Assembly (NCBI RefSeq): GCF_003670115.1
Contig: NZ_QQTY01000002.1
Span: forward strand, 744,001 to 808,000
Direction: 5' to 3'
Source: Natronorubrum halophilum
Lineage (GTDB): Archaea; Halobacteriota; Halobacteria; Halobacteriales; Natrialbaceae
DNA length: 64,000 nt
Numbering within the stretch: position 1 is the first letter of the stretch; every line of letters begins with the position of its first letter. Below the pieces are notes generated by a model, which saw nothing but the letters and a program-made list of their open reading frames with translations, was not told the DNA's origin and did not search any database. A program made the translations under genes and the position numbers. Below are positions 13,781-21,900 of this stretch, in pieces.

Positions 13781-13806
13781 GCGGGTCGTGGTAACGTGTG
13801 ACGACC

Positions 13807-14889
13807 ATGGCAGATTTCGACCTGGAGAGCGCGGAGGGAAGACTCGAGGCGCTGCGCCGAATGGTGACTATCCGCGCCTTCGACGAGGAGGCGGGGGATC
13901 GATTCGCCGACGGCGAGATACCGGGGTTCGTTCACCTCTACATCGGCGAGGAGGCGGTCGGCGTCGGGACCTGCGCGGCGCTCGAGTCAGACGACTACAT
14001 CGCGAGCACGCACCGCGGCCACGGCCACTGTATCGCGAAGGGATTGGACCCGAAGCTGATGATGGCCGAACTCTACGGCAAGGCCGACGGCTACTGCAAC
14101 GGGAAGGGCGGATCGATGCACATCGCCGACGTCGACGCCGGCATGCTCGGCGCGAACGGCATCGTCGGCGCGGGGCCGCCCCTGGCCACCGGCGCGGCGC
14201 TGACCATCGACTACCAGGACCGCGATCAGGTCGCGGTCTCCTTTTGCGGCGACGGCGCGGTCGCACAGGGGCAGGTCCACGAGGCCATCAACCTGGCGGC
14301 GACGTGGGACCTGCCGGCCGTTTTCGTCGTCGAGAACAACGGCTACGGCGAGGCGACGCCGCTGGACAAACAGCACAACGTCGAGAACCTGAGCGACACC
14401 GCCCAGGCCTACGACATTCCGGGATTGACCGTCGACGGAATGGACGTGACCGCCGTCGCGGAGGCCGTCGCGGAGGCTCGAGCGCGCGCCCGCGCCGGCG
14501 ACGGGCCGACGTTCATCGAGGCGAAGACCTACCGCTACCGCGGCCACTACGAGGGCGACGAAGAGCCCTACCGCGACGCCGACGAGATCGAGCGCTGGAA
14601 GGACAGAGACCCGATCGAGTCGTTCAAACGGCGGTTGATCGACCGCGGCGAACTGACCGAAGACGAGTTCGACGACCTGCAGGCCGAGGTCGACGCGATC
14701 ATCGAGGAGGCCTGCGCGTACGCCGAGGAAGCGCCCGCGCCGTCGCCCGCCGAGGCTTACGACGATATGTTCGTCGACACGCCGCCGGAGATCGAACGGT
14801 TCGCGGAGGCGGCGCGGACGCAGACGGACGGCGGACGTGCCGGGTACGGGAGCGGCGACGACACCGACGGCGACCACAGAGGTGACTGA
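13807..14889 (+). CDS. Thiamine-dependent 2-oxoacid (pyruvate/acetoin) dehydrogenase E1 alpha
   Basis: 360 residues. With the next gene forms the E1 decarboxylase that passes an acyl group to lipoylated E2. The thiamine diphosphate motif is complete: GDGAVAQGQVHEAINLAA to VENN. HRGHGHCIAKG and GKGGSMHI are the usual substrate-loop motifs of the acetoin/pyruvate E1 alpha branch. The C-terminus is Gly/Asp-rich. The start is set by the TATA box at 13771. The next gene starts two bases after the stop, and an AcoX-like gene follows, so an acetoin-dehydrogenase-like (aco) role is as likely as pyruvate dehydrogenase. Confidence 0.9.
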   Translation: MADFDLESAEGRLEALRRMVTIRAFDEEAGDRFADGEIPGFVHLYIGEEAVGVGTCAALESDDYIASTHRGHGHCIAKGLDPKLMMAELYGKADGYCNGKGGSMHIADVDAGMLGANGIVGAGPPLATGAALTIDYQDRDQVAVSFCGDGAVAQGQVHEAINLAATWDLPAVFVVENNGYGEATPLDKQHNVENLSDTAQAYDIPGLTVDGMDVTAVAEAVAEARARARAGDGPTFIEAKTYRYRGHYEGDEEPYRDADEIERWKDRDPIESFKRRLIDRGELTEDEFDDLQAEVDAIIEEACAYAEEAPAPSPAEAYDDMFVDTPPEIERFAEAARTQTDGGRAGYGSGDDTDGDHRGD

Positions 14890-14891
14890 TC

Positions 14892-15896
14892 ATGGCACAA
14901 ACGGAACTCGAGCGAGCGGAAGAGACCGAGACGATGACCGTCCGCGAGGCCATCCGACTGGCCCTGCGAGAGGAACTCGAGCGCGACGAGGACGTCTACC
15001 TGATGGGCGAGGACGTCGGCCTGTTCGGCGGCGTCCTCGAGGTGACCGGCGACCTCTACGAGGACTTCGGCGAGGAGCGCGTCCGGGATACCCCGATCAG
15101 CGAGGCCGGATTCATGGGTGCCGCGACCGGATCGGCGGCGACCGGCGCGCGCCCGGTCGTCGAGCTCATGTTCTCGGACTTCGCGGGCGTCTCGATGGAA
15201 CAGATCATGAACCAGATGGCGAAGATGCGCTACATGTTCGGCGGGAAGGCGGAGATGCCGGTCACCGTTCGGACCACCGAGGGCGGCGGTATGGGTGCCG
15301 CGAGCCAGCACTCGGGGACGATCCACAGCTGGATCGCCCACTTCCCGGGTCTGAAGGCGGTCGCGCCCGGCACCCCCGAAAGTGCGAAGGGGCTGACGAA
15401 GGCCGCCATCCGCTCGGACGATCCGGTGTTCGTCTTCGAGAACAAGATGATCTACGAGCAACGCGGCGAGGTCCCGACGGACGAGGACTTCGTTGCCCCG
15501 CTGGGAGCGGCCGCCGTCGAACGCGAGGGCGAGGACGTCACCGTCGTCGCGACTCAACGACTCGTCGGCGAATCGCTCGAGACGGCCGACGACCTCGCGG
15601 GCGACGTGAGCGTCGAGGTGATCGACCCGCGCTCGCTGTACCCCCTCGACACGGAGACGATCGTCGAGAGCGTCCGCAAGACGGGGCGGCTGATCGTCGC
15701 CGACGAGAGCCCGCTGTCGTACGGCACGCACGCCGAAATCGTCGCCCGCGTCCAGGAGGAGGCCTTCTTCAGCCTCGACGCGCCGATCCAGCGCGTCGGG
15801 ACGCCCGACACGCACATTCCGTTCAGCCCGACGCTCGAGCAGGAGGTCCTCCCCTCCGGCGACGACGTCAGAGACGCGATCGATCTGCTCACCTGA
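14892..15896 (+). CDS. 2-oxoacid (pyruvate/acetoin) dehydrogenase E1 beta
   Basis: 334 residues, full length. Transketolase pyrimidine-binding domain (EAIRLALREELERDEDVYLMGEDVG, then FGEERVRDTPISEAGFMGAA) and a C-terminal transketolase domain (GEDVTVVATQRLV, EVIDPRSLYPLDTETI). The phosphorylation-independent bacterial type is expected. Two bases separate it from E1 alpha, and 13 bases separate it from the AcoX-like gene, so the three form one operon. Substrate specificity (pyruvate, acetoin, branched 2-oxoacid) cannot be read from the sequence. Confidence 0.92.
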   Translation: MAQTELERAEETETMTVREAIRLALREELERDEDVYLMGEDVGLFGGVLEVTGDLYEDFGEERVRDTPISEAGFMGAATGSAATGARPVVELMFSDFAGVSMEQIMNQMAKMRYMFGGKAEMPVTVRTTEGGGMGAASQHSGTIHSWIAHFPGLKAVAPGTPESAKGLTKAAIRSDDPVFVFENKMIYEQRGEVPTDEDFVAPLGAAAVEREGEDVTVVATQRLVGESLETADDLAGDVSVEVIDPRSLYPLDTETIVESVRKTGRLIVADESPLSYGTHAEIVARVQEEAFFSLDAPIQRVGTPDTHIPFSPTLEQEVLPSGDDVRDAIDLLT

Positions 15897-15909: not shown

Positions 15910-16959
15910 GTGACACGCCCACGCGTCGGCGTGATCGCGAATCCCGCCGCGGGCCGCGACATCCGCCGACTTACCGGCGGCGCGAGCGTCGTGGACAACT
16001 ACGCGAAACGGCGGGTCGCCGAGTGCGTCTTGGAGGGGCTGACCGTCGCGGTCGACCGCGCGGAGGCCGCGTTCATGCCGGATCGAGCGGGTATCGCCCG
16101 CCACGCCATCACCGAATCACCGCCGGAAGTCGATGCGAGCGCGCTCGAGATGCCGGTCGAGAGCTCTGCAGCCGACACCCGTACGGCGGCGGCCCGGTTC
16201 CGGGACGGAGCGGACGCCGTCGACGTTGCGATCGTTCTCGGCGGCGACGGCACGACCAGAGACGTCTCCCTCGAGATCGGCGACGTGCCGATCGTGTCGG
16301 TCTCGACCGGAACGAACAACGTCGTTCCCACGCCGGTCGACGGCACCGTCGCCGGCGTCGCGGCGGGGCTGATCGCGAGCGGTGTCGTCTCCCCGGACGA
16401 GGCGACCTCGCGTCACGGGCTGGTCGAGGCGCGGGCGGAGACGCCCGCCGGCGAGCGCGAACTGACCGGGCTCGCGACGCTCGAGGTTTCCTCGCAGTCG
16501 TTCGTCGGAACGCGCGCGCTCCTCGATGCGAGCGACCTGCGGGGAGGCGTCGTTTCGCGCGCGCACCCTGGAGACATCGGCCTCGCAGCCATCGCTGGCT
16601 CCATCGAACCGGTGGAACCCGACGAACCCGGCGGGATCGGCCTCCGGCTCACCGACCCGGCGGACGCCTCTCGAACGGTTCGGGCGGTACTCGCACCGGG
16701 CGTGACCGCGACCGTCGGTATCGAGGCCGTAGAACGCCTCGAGTGGAACGAGCCCGTCCGCTTCGAGATCCCGGACGGCGTCGTCGGGGCTGACGGCGAA
16801 CGAGAACTCGAGCTGACAGACGCGGCGGTCGAGTTCGCGCCCGTTCCCGACGGTCCGCGGCTCGTCGACGTGGACGCGACGCTCGAGGCGGGCGCGCGAG
16901 CCGGTGCGCTCGAGGCAGATCGGATGCCGATCGAGGAGGACCGAGAGAACGCCGAGTAG
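15910..16959 (+). CDS. AcoX / ATP-NAD kinase-like protein
   Basis: 349 residues with GTG start at 15910. The N-terminus VGVIANPAAGRDIRRL and the internal VLGGDGTTRDVS with VSTGTNNVVPTP are the NAD-kinase-fold signatures, in the arrangement seen in AcoX proteins of bacterial acetoin operons. AcoX is not needed for acetoin dehydrogenase activity in vitro, and its substrate is unknown. Position third in the E1 operon supports the acetoin-like reading. The gene is convergent with the E2-OsmC gene, 8 bp between stop codons. Confidence 0.8.
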   Translation: MTRPRVGVIANPAAGRDIRRLTGGASVVDNYAKRRVAECVLEGLTVAVDRAEAAFMPDRAGIARHAITESPPEVDASALEMPVESSAADTRTAAARFRDGADAVDVAIVLGGDGTTRDVSLEIGDVPIVSVSTGTNNVVPTPVDGTVAGVAAGLIASGVVSPDEATSRHGLVEARAETPAGERELTGLATLEVSSQSFVGTRALLDASDLRGGVVSRAHPGDIGLAAIAGSIEPVEPDEPGGIGLRLTDPADASRTVRAVLAPGVTATVGIEAVERLEWNEPVRFEIPDGVVGADGERELELTDAAVEFAPVPDGPRLVDVDATLEAGARAGALEADRMPIEEDRENAE

Positions 16960-16967
16960 AACCTCCC

Positions 16968-18824
16968 TCAGACGCGCTCCCAGGAGAGATCCAACTCGAG
17001 GTCCTCGCGGAGCAGTTGCGAGACGTGACAGCCGCGTTCGCCGATCGTGACGATGCGGTCGATCGTCTCGTCGTCGGCGTCGGTCTCGAGACGGACCGTC
17101 GGTTCGATGTGTTCGACGGAACCGCGGTCGGGCGCTCCTTCCGCCGTGACGTCGATCGCTCCGATCGCGACGTCGCGCTTTTCCGCCTGATAGCGGATGC
17201 TCAAGGAGAGACACGACGCGAGCGAGCCGAGGAAGACGTCGACCGGCGTCGGCCCGGTTTCCGCGCCCCCAGCCTCCTCGGGCTCGTCGTATCGCCACTC
17301 GAACGACCCCGCTTCGACGCGACCGCCCATTCCGTCGGGGTTGTGCGCCGTGACGCGTCGGCCCGGCATCTCCGTTTCCGTCGCCGTCGCGTCGCCGGCG
17401 TCGCTCGCCGAGCGGGGTACTTCGTCCGGGAGCAGCGACCACGGGTCCTCGACGTGCGAAACGAGCGACTCGAGAAAGCGCGCGGCGTCGGCCCCGTCGA
17501 CCACTCGGTGGTCGAACGAGAGGTCGAACGGGAGGTGACGTCGCCACGTCGGGGCGTCGTTCTCCCCGCGGACGGGTCGTTCCGCGATCGCGCCGACGCC
17601 GAGGATGGCGACCTGCGGCGGGTTGATGACGGGATCGAACGACTCCACGCCGAACACGCCGAGGTTCGTCACGGTGAACGTCCCACCGGATAGATCGCCC
17701 ATCGTGTACTCGCCGCTGGTCGCCCGCTCGACGAGTTCTCGCCGATTCTTCGCGATTTCCGTCAGCGACGAGCCGCCGACGTCCTCGAGCACCGGCGCGA
17801 TGAGCCCCTGTTCGATGTCGACGGCGACCCCGACGTTGTGATCTTCCCACAGTTGGTGGACGTCGTCTTCGAACGTCGCATTGAACGCGGGGTGCTCCGT
17901 GAGCGCCGCCGACACCGCGAGCAAGAGCACGTCCTGAATGGAGACGTCCGCCTCGAGGGCCTCATCCGCGGCCTCGGCGGCGGCGAGCAGTTCTTCCGCG
18001 TCGCCCTCGCGGGAGACGGTGACGTGGACGGCCTCGCGGTAGCTCTCACCCAACCTCGAGGCGATCGTTCGGCGCATGCCGTCGAACGGGCGCTCCTCGC
18101 GGAGCGTTCTGGCGTCGCCGCCGGATCCGACGGCGTCGGATCGTTCCGCCGCAGCTTCGACGTCTGCTGCGCCGATAGCCCCCTGATAGCCCGTTCCGTC
18201 GACGGTCGCGAGGTCGACGCCCAGTTCGTCGGCCCGTTGTATCGCCCGCGGTGAGGCCCGTACGTCGTCCGCAGACCCTTCCTCGGAACCGCCCGAGTCG
18301 GCCGCCGCTTCGACATCGTCTTCGCTGATCGCTCCCTGATAGCCCGTCCCCTCGACGGTCGTAAGGTCGACGTCCAGTTCGTCGGCTCGCTCCCGCGCTC
18401 GAGGCGACGCGCTGATCTTCCCGCCGTCGCCGGTTCGGCTCGATTCCGTCGAACCGTCCGTCTCGGCCGTCGACGAACTCGCTTGTGCGGGCTCAGCGGC
18501 CGACTTCTGTGGCTTCGTTTCGGGTTCGGCCTCCTGTTCCTCGAGATCGGCCGTCGCTTCCCCCTCGAGGTCGCTAATGTCCTCGTCGGCCGGCGCGATG
18601 ATACCGATGGGGGTTCCCGGCGGAACCGTACCGCCCGCTTCGAGATACACGCGGTGAAGGACCCCATTTTCGCGGGCGTCGACGTCGGCCACACTCTTCT
18701 CGGATTCCACTTCGACGACGGTCTCGCCCTCCGAAACCGCGTCTCCCTCGTCGACGTGCCACTCGAGGAGTTCTCCGCGCTCCATCTCCAGACCCAGCTT
18801 CGGCATCCTGACAATATATCCCAT
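16968..18824 (-). CDS. Lipoyl E2 acyltransferase with two E3-binding domains fused to OsmC
   Basis: 618 residues. Order: lipoyl domain 1-80 with lipoyl Lys43 in VESEKSVADV; acidic linker; two tandem E3-binding domains at about 138-175 and 189-226 (both carry ADEL-VDL-TV-GTGYQGAI); acyltransferase domain 245-460 with active site SFDHRVVDG (His439); then an OsmC-like domain 486-618. The OsmC part keeps both thiol-peroxidase cysteines, Cys538 (SLASCLS) and Cys599 (ERGCHVSQLL). ATG 18824 is chosen over 18839 because the TATA box at 18845-18856 predicts transcription starting at about 18825. It should be the E2 of the convergent E1 operon. No E3 gene lies in the window. Confidence 0.88.
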   Translation of the reverse strand: MGYIVRMPKLGLEMERGELLEWHVDEGDAVSEGETVVEVESEKSVADVDARENGVLHRVYLEAGGTVPPGTPIGIIAPADEDISDLEGEATADLEEQEAEPETKPQKSAAEPAQASSSTAETDGSTESSRTGDGGKISASPRARERADELDVDLTTVEGTGYQGAISEDDVEAAADSGGSEEGSADDVRASPRAIQRADELGVDLATVDGTGYQGAIGAADVEAAAERSDAVGSGGDARTLREERPFDGMRRTIASRLGESYREAVHVTVSREGDAEELLAAAEAADEALEADVSIQDVLLLAVSAALTEHPAFNATFEDDVHQLWEDHNVGVAVDIEQGLIAPVLEDVGGSSLTEIAKNRRELVERATSGEYTMGDLSGGTFTVTNLGVFGVESFDPVINPPQVAILGVGAIAERPVRGENDAPTWRRHLPFDLSFDHRVVDGADAARFLESLVSHVEDPWSLLPDEVPRSASDAGDATATETEMPGRRVTAHNPDGMGGRVEAGSFEWRYDEPEEAGGAETGPTPVDVFLGSLASCLSLSIRYQAEKRDVAIGAIDVTAEGAPDRGSVEHIEPTVRLETDADDETIDRIVTIGERGCHVSQLLREDLELDLSWERV

Positions 18825-19057: not shown

Positions 19058-20962
19058 ATGAGCGACGACGAACTTATCTGGCGAATCGCAGGCGGTTCCG
19101 GTGACGGAATCGACTCGACGAGCCAGAACTTCGCGAAAGCGCTGATGCGCTCGGGGCTCGACGTATTCACTCACCGCCACTATCCGTCGCGGATCCGCGG
19201 TGGCCACACGTACGTCGAAATTCGGGCCGCAGCCGACGAGGTACAGTCACGAGGGGATGGCTACAACTTCCTGCTTTCACTGGGCGACTCCTTCGCCCGC
19301 AACCCGCAGGAAGAGGCCTATTACGGCAACGAAGAGATCAAGCCACTCTCGGAGAACTTAGACGAACTGCGAGAAGGAGGAATCATCGTGTACGACGAGG
19401 GCCTCATCAGCGAGGAGGACGTCGAAGCGATCAACCTCGAGGAGCGTGCCGAGGAGAACGACTGGCACGTCTTCCCGATGGACCTCCGCGGTCTCGCCAA
19501 GGAACACGGCCGCGAGGTCATGCGGAACACGGCCGGCGTCGGCGTCACCGCAGCGCTGTTGGACATGGATCTCGAGCACATCGAGAACCTGATGTCCGAT
19601 GCGATGTCCGACGACATTCTCGAGGCGAACCTCGAGATTCTCCACGAGGCCTACGAGACCGTCAACGAGGAGTACGAGTTCGAACACGACCTTCGTGTCC
19701 CGACCGGCGAGCACGAGACCGAACAGGCGCTCCTGTCGGGTTCGAACGCGATCGCCTACGGCGCGATCGACGGTGGCTGCCGATTCATCGCGGGCTACCC
19801 GATGACGCCGTGGACGGACGTGTTCACCATCCTCACCCAGAACTTCCCGGAGATGGGCGGTATCTCCGAACAGGTCGAGGACGAGATCGCCGCCGCCGCG
19901 CTGGCCGTCGGTGCGAGCCACGCCGGTGTCAAAGCCATGTCCGGCTCCTCCGGCGGTGGCTTCGCGCTGATGAGCGAACCGCTCGGACTCGCCGAGATGA
20001 CCGAGACGCCGCTGGTCCTCGTCGAGTCGATGCGCGCCGGTCCCTCGACCGGACTGCCGACCAAACCGGAACAGGCTGACCTCGAGTTCGTTCTCTACAC
20101 GAGCCAGGGCGACTCCTCGCGGGTCGTCTTCGCGCCGGGGAACATCGAGGAGGCCTACGAGCAGACCCGCCTGGCGTTCGACATCGCCTGGGAGTACCAG
20201 ATCCCGACGATCATCATCTACGACCAGAAGCTCTCCGGCGAGAACAAGAACGTCGACGTCGAGTTCTTCGACCGCGAACCGGAACCGGGACTCGGATCGA
20301 CGCTGACCGAGGAGGAACTGAAGGAAGCCGCCCACGACGTGAGCGGCAAGTTCAAACGCTTCAACTACGAGGACGCCGAGAACAACGTCGCCCCGCGGTC
20401 GCTTCCCGGCCAGAAGGGCGGACGGTACCTCGCGACCGGCAACGAACACAGTCCGGTCGGACACATCGAAGAGGATCCCGACAACCGCGTCGCCCAGATG
20501 ACGCGGCGGGTCGAGAAACTCGAGTCCATCCGCGAGGAACTCGACGAAGAACATCCCTCGAACCAGACCTACTTCGGCGACGAAACGGCCGACTACGGGA
20601 TTATCACGTGGGGTTCGAGTCACGGCGCCGTCGCAGAGGCCGTCGAACGCCTGAACGACGATGGTCACTCCGTCAAGGGAATCACCGTCTCGGACATGAT
20701 GCCGTTCCCCGAGCAAGAGGTGACCGAGTTCATCGAGAGCGTCGACGAAGCGATGGTCGTCGAGATGAACGCCACCGCACAGTTCCGCGGCCTGATCCAG
20801 AAGGAACTGGGTCGCTTCGGCGAGAAACTCACGAGCCTGCTCAAGTACAACGGCAACCCGTTCGAACCCGCAGAGGTCGTCGAAGGATACGAGGTCAACC
20901 TCGCCGAGGATGACCGCGAACCGACCGCGCAGGTCCGAATCGAACCTGCTGCAGGTGATTAA
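19058..20962 (+). CDS. porA: Pyruvate (2-oxoacid):ferredoxin oxidoreductase, fused gamma-alpha subunit
   Basis: 634 residues. Oxidises a 2-oxoacid to acyl-CoA with ferredoxin as acceptor, the main haloarchaeal route from pyruvate to acetyl-CoA. Residues about 1-190 are the gamma domain (RIAGGSGDGIDSTSQNFAKA, RIRGGHTYVEIRA); from about 215 the alpha PFOR domain (NAIAYGAIDGGCRFIAGYPM, SGSSGGGFALMSEP, THE-type segment KPEQADLEFVLYTSQGD). The length fits haloarchaeal PorA (about 630) better than KorA (about 590), from memory, so 2-oxoglutarate specificity is not ruled out. porB follows two bases downstream. Confidence 0.88.
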   Translation: MSDDELIWRIAGGSGDGIDSTSQNFAKALMRSGLDVFTHRHYPSRIRGGHTYVEIRAAADEVQSRGDGYNFLLSLGDSFARNPQEEAYYGNEEIKPLSENLDELREGGIIVYDEGLISEEDVEAINLEERAEENDWHVFPMDLRGLAKEHGREVMRNTAGVGVTAALLDMDLEHIENLMSDAMSDDILEANLEILHEAYETVNEEYEFEHDLRVPTGEHETEQALLSGSNAIAYGAIDGGCRFIAGYPMTPWTDVFTILTQNFPEMGGISEQVEDEIAAAALAVGASHAGVKAMSGSSGGGFALMSEPLGLAEMTETPLVLVESMRAGPSTGLPTKPEQADLEFVLYTSQGDSSRVVFAPGNIEEAYEQTRLAFDIAWEYQIPTIIIYDQKLSGENKNVDVEFFDREPEPGLGSTLTEEELKEAAHDVSGKFKRFNYEDAENNVAPRSLPGQKGGRYLATGNEHSPVGHIEEDPDNRVAQMTRRVEKLESIREELDEEHPSNQTYFGDETADYGIITWGSSHGAVAEAVERLNDDGHSVKGITVSDMMPFPEQEVTEFIESVDEAMVVEMNATAQFRGLIQKELGRFGEKLTSLLKYNGNPFEPAEVVEGYEVNLAEDDREPTAQVRIEPAAGD

Positions 20963-20964
20963 TC

Positions 20965-21900
20965 ATGAGTGCATTCAACGCAATCGGTGAAGAACGAGAG
21001 ATCGACCGGGACGAGTTCACGCCCGGTGTCGAACCGCAGCCGACCTGGTGTCCGGGCTGTGGCGACTTCGGGGTCCTGAAATCGCTGAAACAGGCCCTCC
21101 CCGAAGTCGGCAGGACGCCTGAAGAAGTGCTGACGGTGACCGGGATCGGCTGTTCCGGCAAGCTGAACAGCTACCTGGACACGTACGGCTTCCACACGAT
21201 CCACGGGCGCTCGCTGCCCGTCGCTCGTGCCGCGAAGCTCGCGAACCCGGAACTCGAGGTCATCGCCGCGGGCGGTGACGGCGACGGCTACGGGATCGGT
21301 GGCAACCACTGGATCCACACGGCCCGGGAGAACCACGACATCACGTACATCGTCTTCAACAACGAGATTTTCGGCCTGACGAAGGGACAGACCTCGCCGA
21401 CGAGTCCGAAGGGTCACAAGTCCAAGACGCAGCCCTCGGGCAGCGCGAAGACGCCGCTGCGACCGCTGTCGATGTCGCTGAACGCCGGCGCGAGCTACGT
21501 CGCTCGGACGGCCGCCGTCAACCCGAACCAGGCAAAGGAGATCATCGCGGAGGCCATCGAACACGACGGCTTCGCCCACGTCGACTTCCTGACGCAGTGT
21601 CCGACGTGGAACAAGGACGCCCGTCAGTACGTGCCCTACATCGACGTCCAGGAGTCCGACGATTACGACTTCGACATCCACGACCGGCGCGAAGCCGCCG
21701 AGATGATGCACGAGACCGAGGACGTGCTCAAGGACGGAACCGTCCTCACCGGTCGGTACTACGTCGACGACGACCGACCGTCCTACCAGCAAGAGAAGAC
21801 CGCCGTCGGCGAGATGCCCGACGAACCGCTCGCGGAGCGGTACTTCGACGACGACGCCGAGTGGGAGCGCAGCTACGACCTGCTCGAGCGCCACACCTGA
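20965..21900 (+). CDS. porB: Pyruvate (2-oxoacid):ferredoxin oxidoreductase, beta subunit
   Basis: 311 residues. Carries thiamine diphosphate (GGDGDGYGIGGNHWIHT to FNNEIFGLTKGQ) and one [4Fe-4S] cluster. The four cluster ligands are visible: Cys29 and Cys32 (TWCPGCGD), Cys63 (GIGCSG) and Cys212 (LTQCPTWN). This is the haloarchaeal two-subunit type lacking the extra ferredoxin domain. It has a GGTGATT Shine-Dalgarno-like sequence before the ATG. The T8 tract at 21939 probably ends the porAB transcript. Confidence 0.9.
   Translation: MSAFNAIGEEREIDRDEFTPGVEPQPTWCPGCGDFGVLKSLKQALPEVGRTPEEVLTVTGIGCSGKLNSYLDTYGFHTIHGRSLPVARAAKLANPELEVIAAGGDGDGYGIGGNHWIHTARENHDITYIVFNNEIFGLTKGQTSPTSPKGHKSKTQPSGSAKTPLRPLSMSLNAGASYVARTAAVNPNQAKEIIAEAIEHDGFAHVDFLTQCPTWNKDARQYVPYIDVQESDDYDFDIHDRREAAEMMHETEDVLKDGTVLTGRYYVDDDRPSYQQEKTAVGEMPDEPLAERYFDDDAEWERSYDLLERHT

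What the first reader, a model, noticed from the sequence alone, without database searches (positions are those of the whole stretch)
16968..18824. E2 acyltransferase fused to an OsmC peroxiredoxin-like domain
One protein carries a lipoyl domain, two tandem E3-binding domains, the acyltransferase and an OsmC domain with both redox Cys. OsmC and E2 both use thiols; lipoamide reduces OsmC peroxidases in bacteria. The fusion could couple dehydrogenase lipoamide to hydroperoxide removal, protecting the complex.
Basis: partly seen in the sequence, partly recalled or inferred. Interest (0 to 1): 0.65.

Follow-up and report, generated by a model that had tools for sequence, protein, structure and literature searches.

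The report
Dehydrogenase E2 fused to OsmC domain
In many salt-loving archaea the lipoate-carrying core subunit of a dehydrogenase complex is one protein with a two-cysteine OsmC domain. That domain lacks the residues OsmC peroxidases use and survives when the dehydrogenase is lost, so its job is probably thiol redox chemistry, not simply peroxide protection of the complex.

Summary
Window 16968-18824, minus strand, is one 618-aa ORF: lipoyl domain, two E3-binding domains, acyltransferase core, OsmC domain with both Cys. It is not an isolated accident: the full fusion occurs in about 40 of 125 sampled genomes of this family and in other haloarchaeal families, usually convergent with E1-alpha, E1-beta and an AcoX-like gene.

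The peroxidase interpretation is weakened. The two Cys are invariant, but the Arg and Glu of Ohr/OsmC peroxidases are replaced, as in the uncharacterised YhfA class (PMC8945050). An esterase with a fused OsmC domain showed no peroxidase activity (PMC5113044). Ten genomes lost the E3-binding domains, the core and the lipoyl lysine, and nine of them the neighbouring E1 and AcoX genes, but kept OsmC with both Cys; in the pairs measured OsmC is still under purifying selection while the dead lipoyl domain drifts. Four others have an unrelated E2 and OsmC as a separate gene.

Best reading: a YhfA-type thiol-redox module tethered to an E2, probably exchanging electrons with dihydrolipoyl groups, with a function separable from the dehydrogenase.

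The parts
16968..18824 (-). E2-OsmC fusion gene, 618 aa
18585..18824 (-). lipoyl domain, aa 1-80; lipoyl Lys43 at 18696-18698
   Evidence: Pfam PF00364; ESEK motif
18309..18413 (-). E3-binding domain 1, aa 138-172
   Evidence: Pfam PF02817; helices in model
18150..18260 (-). E3-binding domain 2, about aa 189-225
   Evidence: second PF02817 stretch; motif GTGYQG; helices in model
17430..18098 (-). acyltransferase core, aa 243-465, with HRVVDG at 17493-17510
   Evidence: Pfam PF00198 E 4e-67
17364..17408 (-). low-confidence linker, aa 473-487; contains an in-frame ATG at 17367-17369
   Evidence: pLDDT below 50; ATG conservation
16971..17375 (-). OsmC domain, aa 484-618; Cp Cys538 at 17211-17213, Cr Cys599 at 17028-17030
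   Evidence: PF02566 E 1.5e-15; AlphaFold pLDDT 95.7; fold matches
13798..14889 (+). E1 alpha subunit gene (E1_dh)
14892..15896 (+). E1 beta subunit gene
15910..16959 (+). AcoX-like gene with an ATP-NAD kinase domain, convergent with the fusion; the name AcoX is from my own knowledge
   Evidence: PF01513; no solved relative found; cluster conserved
19058..20962 (+). 2-oxoacid:ferredoxin oxidoreductase alpha (Kor/PorA), divergent neighbour; named from the sequence, not scanned
   Evidence: ORF; conserved neighbour in most Natrialbaceae loci
20965..21900 (+). 2-oxoacid:ferredoxin oxidoreductase beta; named from the sequence, not scanned
   Evidence: ORF

Best explanation
The gene encodes the E2 core of an AcoABX-like 2-oxoacid (possibly acetoin) dehydrogenase complex with a YhfA-like OsmC domain at its C-terminus. 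In the complex the lipoyl arm would visit E1, the acyltransferase site and E3 (established E2 chemistry; the residues are shown). I infer that the OsmC Cys pair forms a dithiol/disulfide couple that dihydrolipoyl groups can reduce: the on-chain arm in intact fusions, other lipoyl proteins such as GcvH in genomes where that arm is gone. I infer that its oxidising substrate is not mainly organic hydroperoxide, or is one handled without the Ohr-type Arg/Glu. Shown: fusion, conservation, residue replacements, separability from the dehydrogenase. Inferred: electron exchange with lipoate, and the nature of the oxidant.
For: Both Cys invariant in 38 OsmC domains down to 36% identity. All full fusions with a readable lipoyl domain keep the Lys. 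Solved Ohr structures with dihydrolipoamide exist among the fold matches (6ebg, 6ebd). Arg column not conserved as Arg, Glu column Val 37/38, acid at Cp-9 as in E. coli YhfA; the YhfA structure 1ml8 is among the closest folds (TM 0.83/0.85, Z 15.3). Separability: ten lipoyl-remnant-OsmC genes (LDO) and four stand-alone OsmC genes. Changes to the LDO state forced by supported branches: at least 4 on the OsmC tree and 3 on the independent KorA tree. dN/dS of OsmC 0.16-0.18 in three close LDO pairs against 0.08-0.26 in full fusions; of the lipoyl remnant 0.43 and 0.30 in the only two LDO pairs measured, against 0.04-0.23 in full fusions. Lipoamide dehydrogenase in all 13 and GcvH in 12 of 13 LDO/stand-alone genomes tested, so reduction in trans is possible.
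Against: No direct evidence that lipoate reduces this OsmC domain. Persistence without on-chain lipoate would also fit a function unrelated to lipoate. A nearly invariant Asp at Cp-9 and Arg at domain position 6 could form an alternative peroxidase site, so peroxidase activity is not excluded. dN/dS rests on few hand-picked pairs and a simple counting method.
Confidence: 0.5

Rival explanations
1. One reading: the domain is a lipoyl-dependent organic hydroperoxidase coupled to the complex and protecting it.
For: Both Cys and lipoyl Lys conserved in intact fusions; lipoyl proteins reduce Ohr and OsmC (PMC8945050, PMC5962072); full OsmC fold.
Against: Ohr catalytic Arg and Glu replaced; fused OsmC of an esterase inactive as peroxidase (PMC5113044); OsmC kept where the E2 core, lipoyl Lys and, in nine genomes, neighbouring E1 are gone.
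Confidence: 0.25
2. The OsmC domain is a passenger enzyme whose own reaction has nothing to do with lipoate; the fusion only gives shared expression or a scaffold.
For: OsmC persists as a separate gene or behind a dead lipoyl remnant; unfused close E2s exist without OsmC; OsmC domains are also fused to esterases.
Against: The fusion to this particular lipoyl enzyme is kept across several haloarchaeal families, and the family's known chemistry is lipoyl-linked.
Confidence: 0.2
3. The OsmC domain is a non-catalytic structural or regulatory domain of the E2 core.
For: YhfA-type residues; removal of OsmC from the esterase changed activity only modestly (PMC5113044).
Against: Both Cys invariant in 38 of 38 sequences, and purifying selection continues after loss of the E2 core.
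Confidence: 0.05

Closest known systems
Ohr/OsmC lipoyl-dependent peroxidases
   Same: Fold, Cys pair, known use of lipoyl proteins as reductant
   Different: Catalytic Arg and Glu not conserved here; fused to the lipoyl enzyme instead of a free protein
YhfA subfamily of the Ohr/OsmC family (E. coli YhfA, 1ml8)
   Same: Two Cys kept, Arg and Glu lacking, acid at Cp-9, close fold
   Different: E. coli YhfA is a free protein; its biochemistry is stated as uninvestigated in PMC8945050
EstO/EstRM esterases with C-terminal OsmC domain (PMC5113044)
   Same: C-terminal OsmC fusion to an unrelated enzyme, both Cys; same acid position in the hydrolase-OsmC of L063
   Different: Partner is an esterase, not a lipoyl E2; no peroxidase activity found for EstRM
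E2 (dihydrolipoyl acyltransferase) of 2-oxoacid/acetoin dehydrogenase complexes
   Same: Lipoyl, E3-binding and acyltransferase domains, E1 genes adjacent, AcoX-like gene
   Different: Two E3-binding domains and an added OsmC domain
Trichomonas OsmC with the glycine decarboxylase complex
   Same: OsmC works with a lipoyl system in peroxide detoxification (title of a reference in PMC10332631; paper itself not read)
   Different: Separate proteins, not a fusion (own knowledge)

Membership tests
E2 of 2-oxoacid dehydrogenase complexes | Lipoyl domain with acceptor Lys | tested here: met
   PF00364, ESEK Lys43
E2 of 2-oxoacid dehydrogenase complexes | Peripheral subunit (E3) binding domain | tested here: met
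   Two PF02817 stretches
E2 of 2-oxoacid dehydrogenase complexes | Acyltransferase core with HxxxDG | tested here: met
   PF00198, HRVVDG
E2 of 2-oxoacid dehydrogenase complexes | Partner E1 genes and an E3 in the genome | tested here: met
   E1 alpha/beta adjacent; lipoamide dehydrogenase over cut-off on contig C4
E2 of 2-oxoacid dehydrogenase complexes | Acyltransferase activity and substrate | not testable with these tools
   Substrates of most haloarchaeal complexes are unknown (PMC8305020)
Ohr/OsmC peroxidases | OsmC fold | tested here: met
   pLDDT 95.7; family structures at Z 12-16
Ohr/OsmC peroxidases | Peroxidatic and resolving Cys | tested here: met
   38 of 38
Ohr/OsmC peroxidases | Catalytic Arg (Arg19 of XfOhr) | tested here: not met
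   Aligned position is Leu in the profile and Met in the window, no conserved Arg there
Ohr/OsmC peroxidases | Catalytic Glu at Cp-10 (Glu51 of XfOhr) | tested here: not met
   Val in 37 of 38, Pro in 1
Ohr/OsmC peroxidases | Hydroperoxide reduction | not testable with these tools
   needs an enzyme assay
YhfA subfamily | Two Cys kept, catalytic Arg and Glu absent | tested here: met
   definition from PMC8945050
YhfA subfamily | Monophyly with E. coli YhfA | not tested
   no family-wide OsmC tree was built; closest PDB sequence match is Ta0195
Acetoin dehydrogenase (Aco) system | AcoX-like gene beside E1 genes | tested here: inconclusive
   A PF01513 gene sits in the conserved cluster; no AcoX-specific model was matched
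Acetoin dehydrogenase (Aco) system | Activity on acetoin | not testable with these tools
   only homology, for a Haloferax paralogue pair

The most novel reading that the evidence does not exclude
The YhfA class of OsmC proteins, which has no assigned biochemistry, is a lipoyl-linked thiol oxidoreductase with a substrate other than organic hydroperoxide, and haloarchaea have hard-wired it to an E2 so that dihydrolipoyl groups can drain electrons to it.
Probability: 0.3. Interest if true: 0.75.

Novelty: new variant of a known kind. Interest (0 to 1): 0.52.

Why it matters
The function of the YhfA class is open. A conserved covalent link to a lipoyl enzyme names a candidate electron donor, and the natural series (intact fusion, lipoyl-dead remnant, stand-alone OsmC) gives ready-made constructs to test whether the link is required. 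In the papers searched I found no description of an E2-OsmC fusion, though most subscription papers and domain-architecture databases were not available.

Tried and rejected
Plasmid search gave no place covering 80% of the query; the haloarchaeal hits listed were E2 matches without the OsmC part. The two other OsmC-family genes of this genome both have the acid at Cp-9 and one lacks Cr; by that criterion I found no canonical Ohr/OsmC here. The idea that the L132 gene is a different fusion was dropped: it reads as a lipoyl remnant with a low-complexity insert plus OsmC. Shine-Dalgarno-like motifs precede the internal ATG in only 7 of 44, so no case for internal translation was made. An E3 query made from L137 was a spurious antisense ORF and its hits were ignored. 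A PDB search for the AcoX-like gene found nothing.

Full report
Observation. The minus-strand ORF from 18824 to 16968 encodes 618 aa with lipoyl, two E3-binding, acyltransferase and OsmC domains. The whole genome has one such gene. AlphaFold of the full protein (mean pLDDT 79.3, pTM 0.42) gives folded domains separated by low-confidence stretches, among them 100-135, 178-186, 230-237 and 473-487; the OsmC domain alone gives pLDDT 95.7.

Distribution. Among 125 genomes of the same family, 55 carry the OsmC domain at E <= 1e-15. By open-frame length and, for most, by reading the domains, 40 are full fusions, one lacks a working lipoyl domain (G063), nine are short lipoyl-remnant-OsmC genes (here LDO), four are stand-alone OsmC, and one more (G353) reads as an LDO. 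Full fusions also occur in other haloarchaeal families. The usual cluster is E1 alpha, E1 beta, AcoX-like, convergent with the fusion; in most Natrialbaceae loci a ferredoxin oxidoreductase pair is the divergent neighbour. On the core tree, unfused E2s lie inside the fused clade, which suggests an old fusion with later losses, though at least three changes are forced and long branches make single placements unsure.

The domain is YhfA-like. In 38 OsmC domains both Cys are invariant. Against Ohr structures the Arg position falls on Leu (Met in the window) and the Glu on Val; the conserved acid is at Cp-9, as in E. coli YhfA, not Cp-10. YhfA proteins are described as keeping both Cys but lacking that Arg and Glu, with biochemistry still to be investigated (PMC8945050). 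The YhfA structure 1ml8 is among the best fold matches; Ohr and OsmC structures match too, so fold alone does not assign the class. The esterase EstRM, with a C-terminal OsmC domain and both Cys, showed no significant peroxidase activity with H2O2 or cumene hydroperoxide (PMC5113044); that assay used DTT, not lipoamide.

A natural experiment. Where the gene is LDO, the E3-binding domains, core and lipoyl Lys are gone but OsmC and both Cys remain. In nine of these the neighbouring E1 and AcoX genes are also absent from the locus; genome-wide, no E1 beta of 80% identity or more and no AcoX match at E <= 1e-15 was found in eight of the nine, while G316 has such a cluster elsewhere. Some of these genomes are incomplete (G330 85%, G353 70%). 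The LDO state needs at least four changes on the OsmC tree and three on the KorA tree at supported branches.

Selection was estimated by a Nei-Gojobori count on hand-picked pairs. For OsmC, three close LDO pairs gave 0.16, 0.17 and 0.18, a more distant LDO pair 0.31, and full-fusion pairs 0.08-0.26. For the lipoyl domain only two LDO-LDO pairs had values, 0.43 (L117-L118) and 0.30 (L068-L116), against 0.04-0.23 in full fusions. LDO-to-full pairs gave 0.29-0.36 for the lipoyl remnant and 0.17-0.28 for OsmC. The remaining LDO genes were not measured for the lipoyl remnant, so relaxation there is shown for few lineages.

Replacement and trans reduction. In genus g18 the E2 of the cluster is a distant unfused one and OsmC is a separate gene beside E1 alpha. 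GcvH was found in 12 and lipoamide dehydrogenase in all 13 of the LDO and stand-alone genomes tested, so reduction in trans remains possible.

Judgement. The fusion is real and conserved. A lipoyl link is plausible because full fusions keep the Lys and the family's known reductants are lipoyl proteins. The specific claim of peroxide protection of the complex is weakened by the residue replacements and by OsmC outliving the dehydrogenase, but not excluded. The substrate of the dehydrogenase is unknown; for one Haloferax paralogue pair the characterised homologues listed are acetoin dehydrogenases (PMC8305020). I did not test whether the window's E1 is the orthologue of that pair.

Noticed in passing
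window 18150-18413: Two tandem E3-binding domains; a motif count gave two in most intact fusions read and one or none in some.
   Followed up: partly
L123 4542-6668: E1 alpha and E1 beta lie in one 709-aa ORF beside a second E2-OsmC fusion in G310.
   Followed up: no
L123 6775-8523, L126 6396-8270, L031 1480-3420: Core motif reads HRVVNG instead of HRVVDG in this subgroup.
   Followed up: no
L127 7191-8669: Intermediate gene: lipoyl Lys and E3-binding domains lost, core and OsmC kept, no E1 match in 16 kb.
   Followed up: partly
L124 7593-7982: Extra OsmC fragment in G336 with a stop inside the match, likely a decayed copy.
   Followed up: no
L150 9686-14286: G316 has a second E1-AcoX cluster with an unfused E2, and a lipoamide dehydrogenase match lies nearby.
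   Followed up: partly
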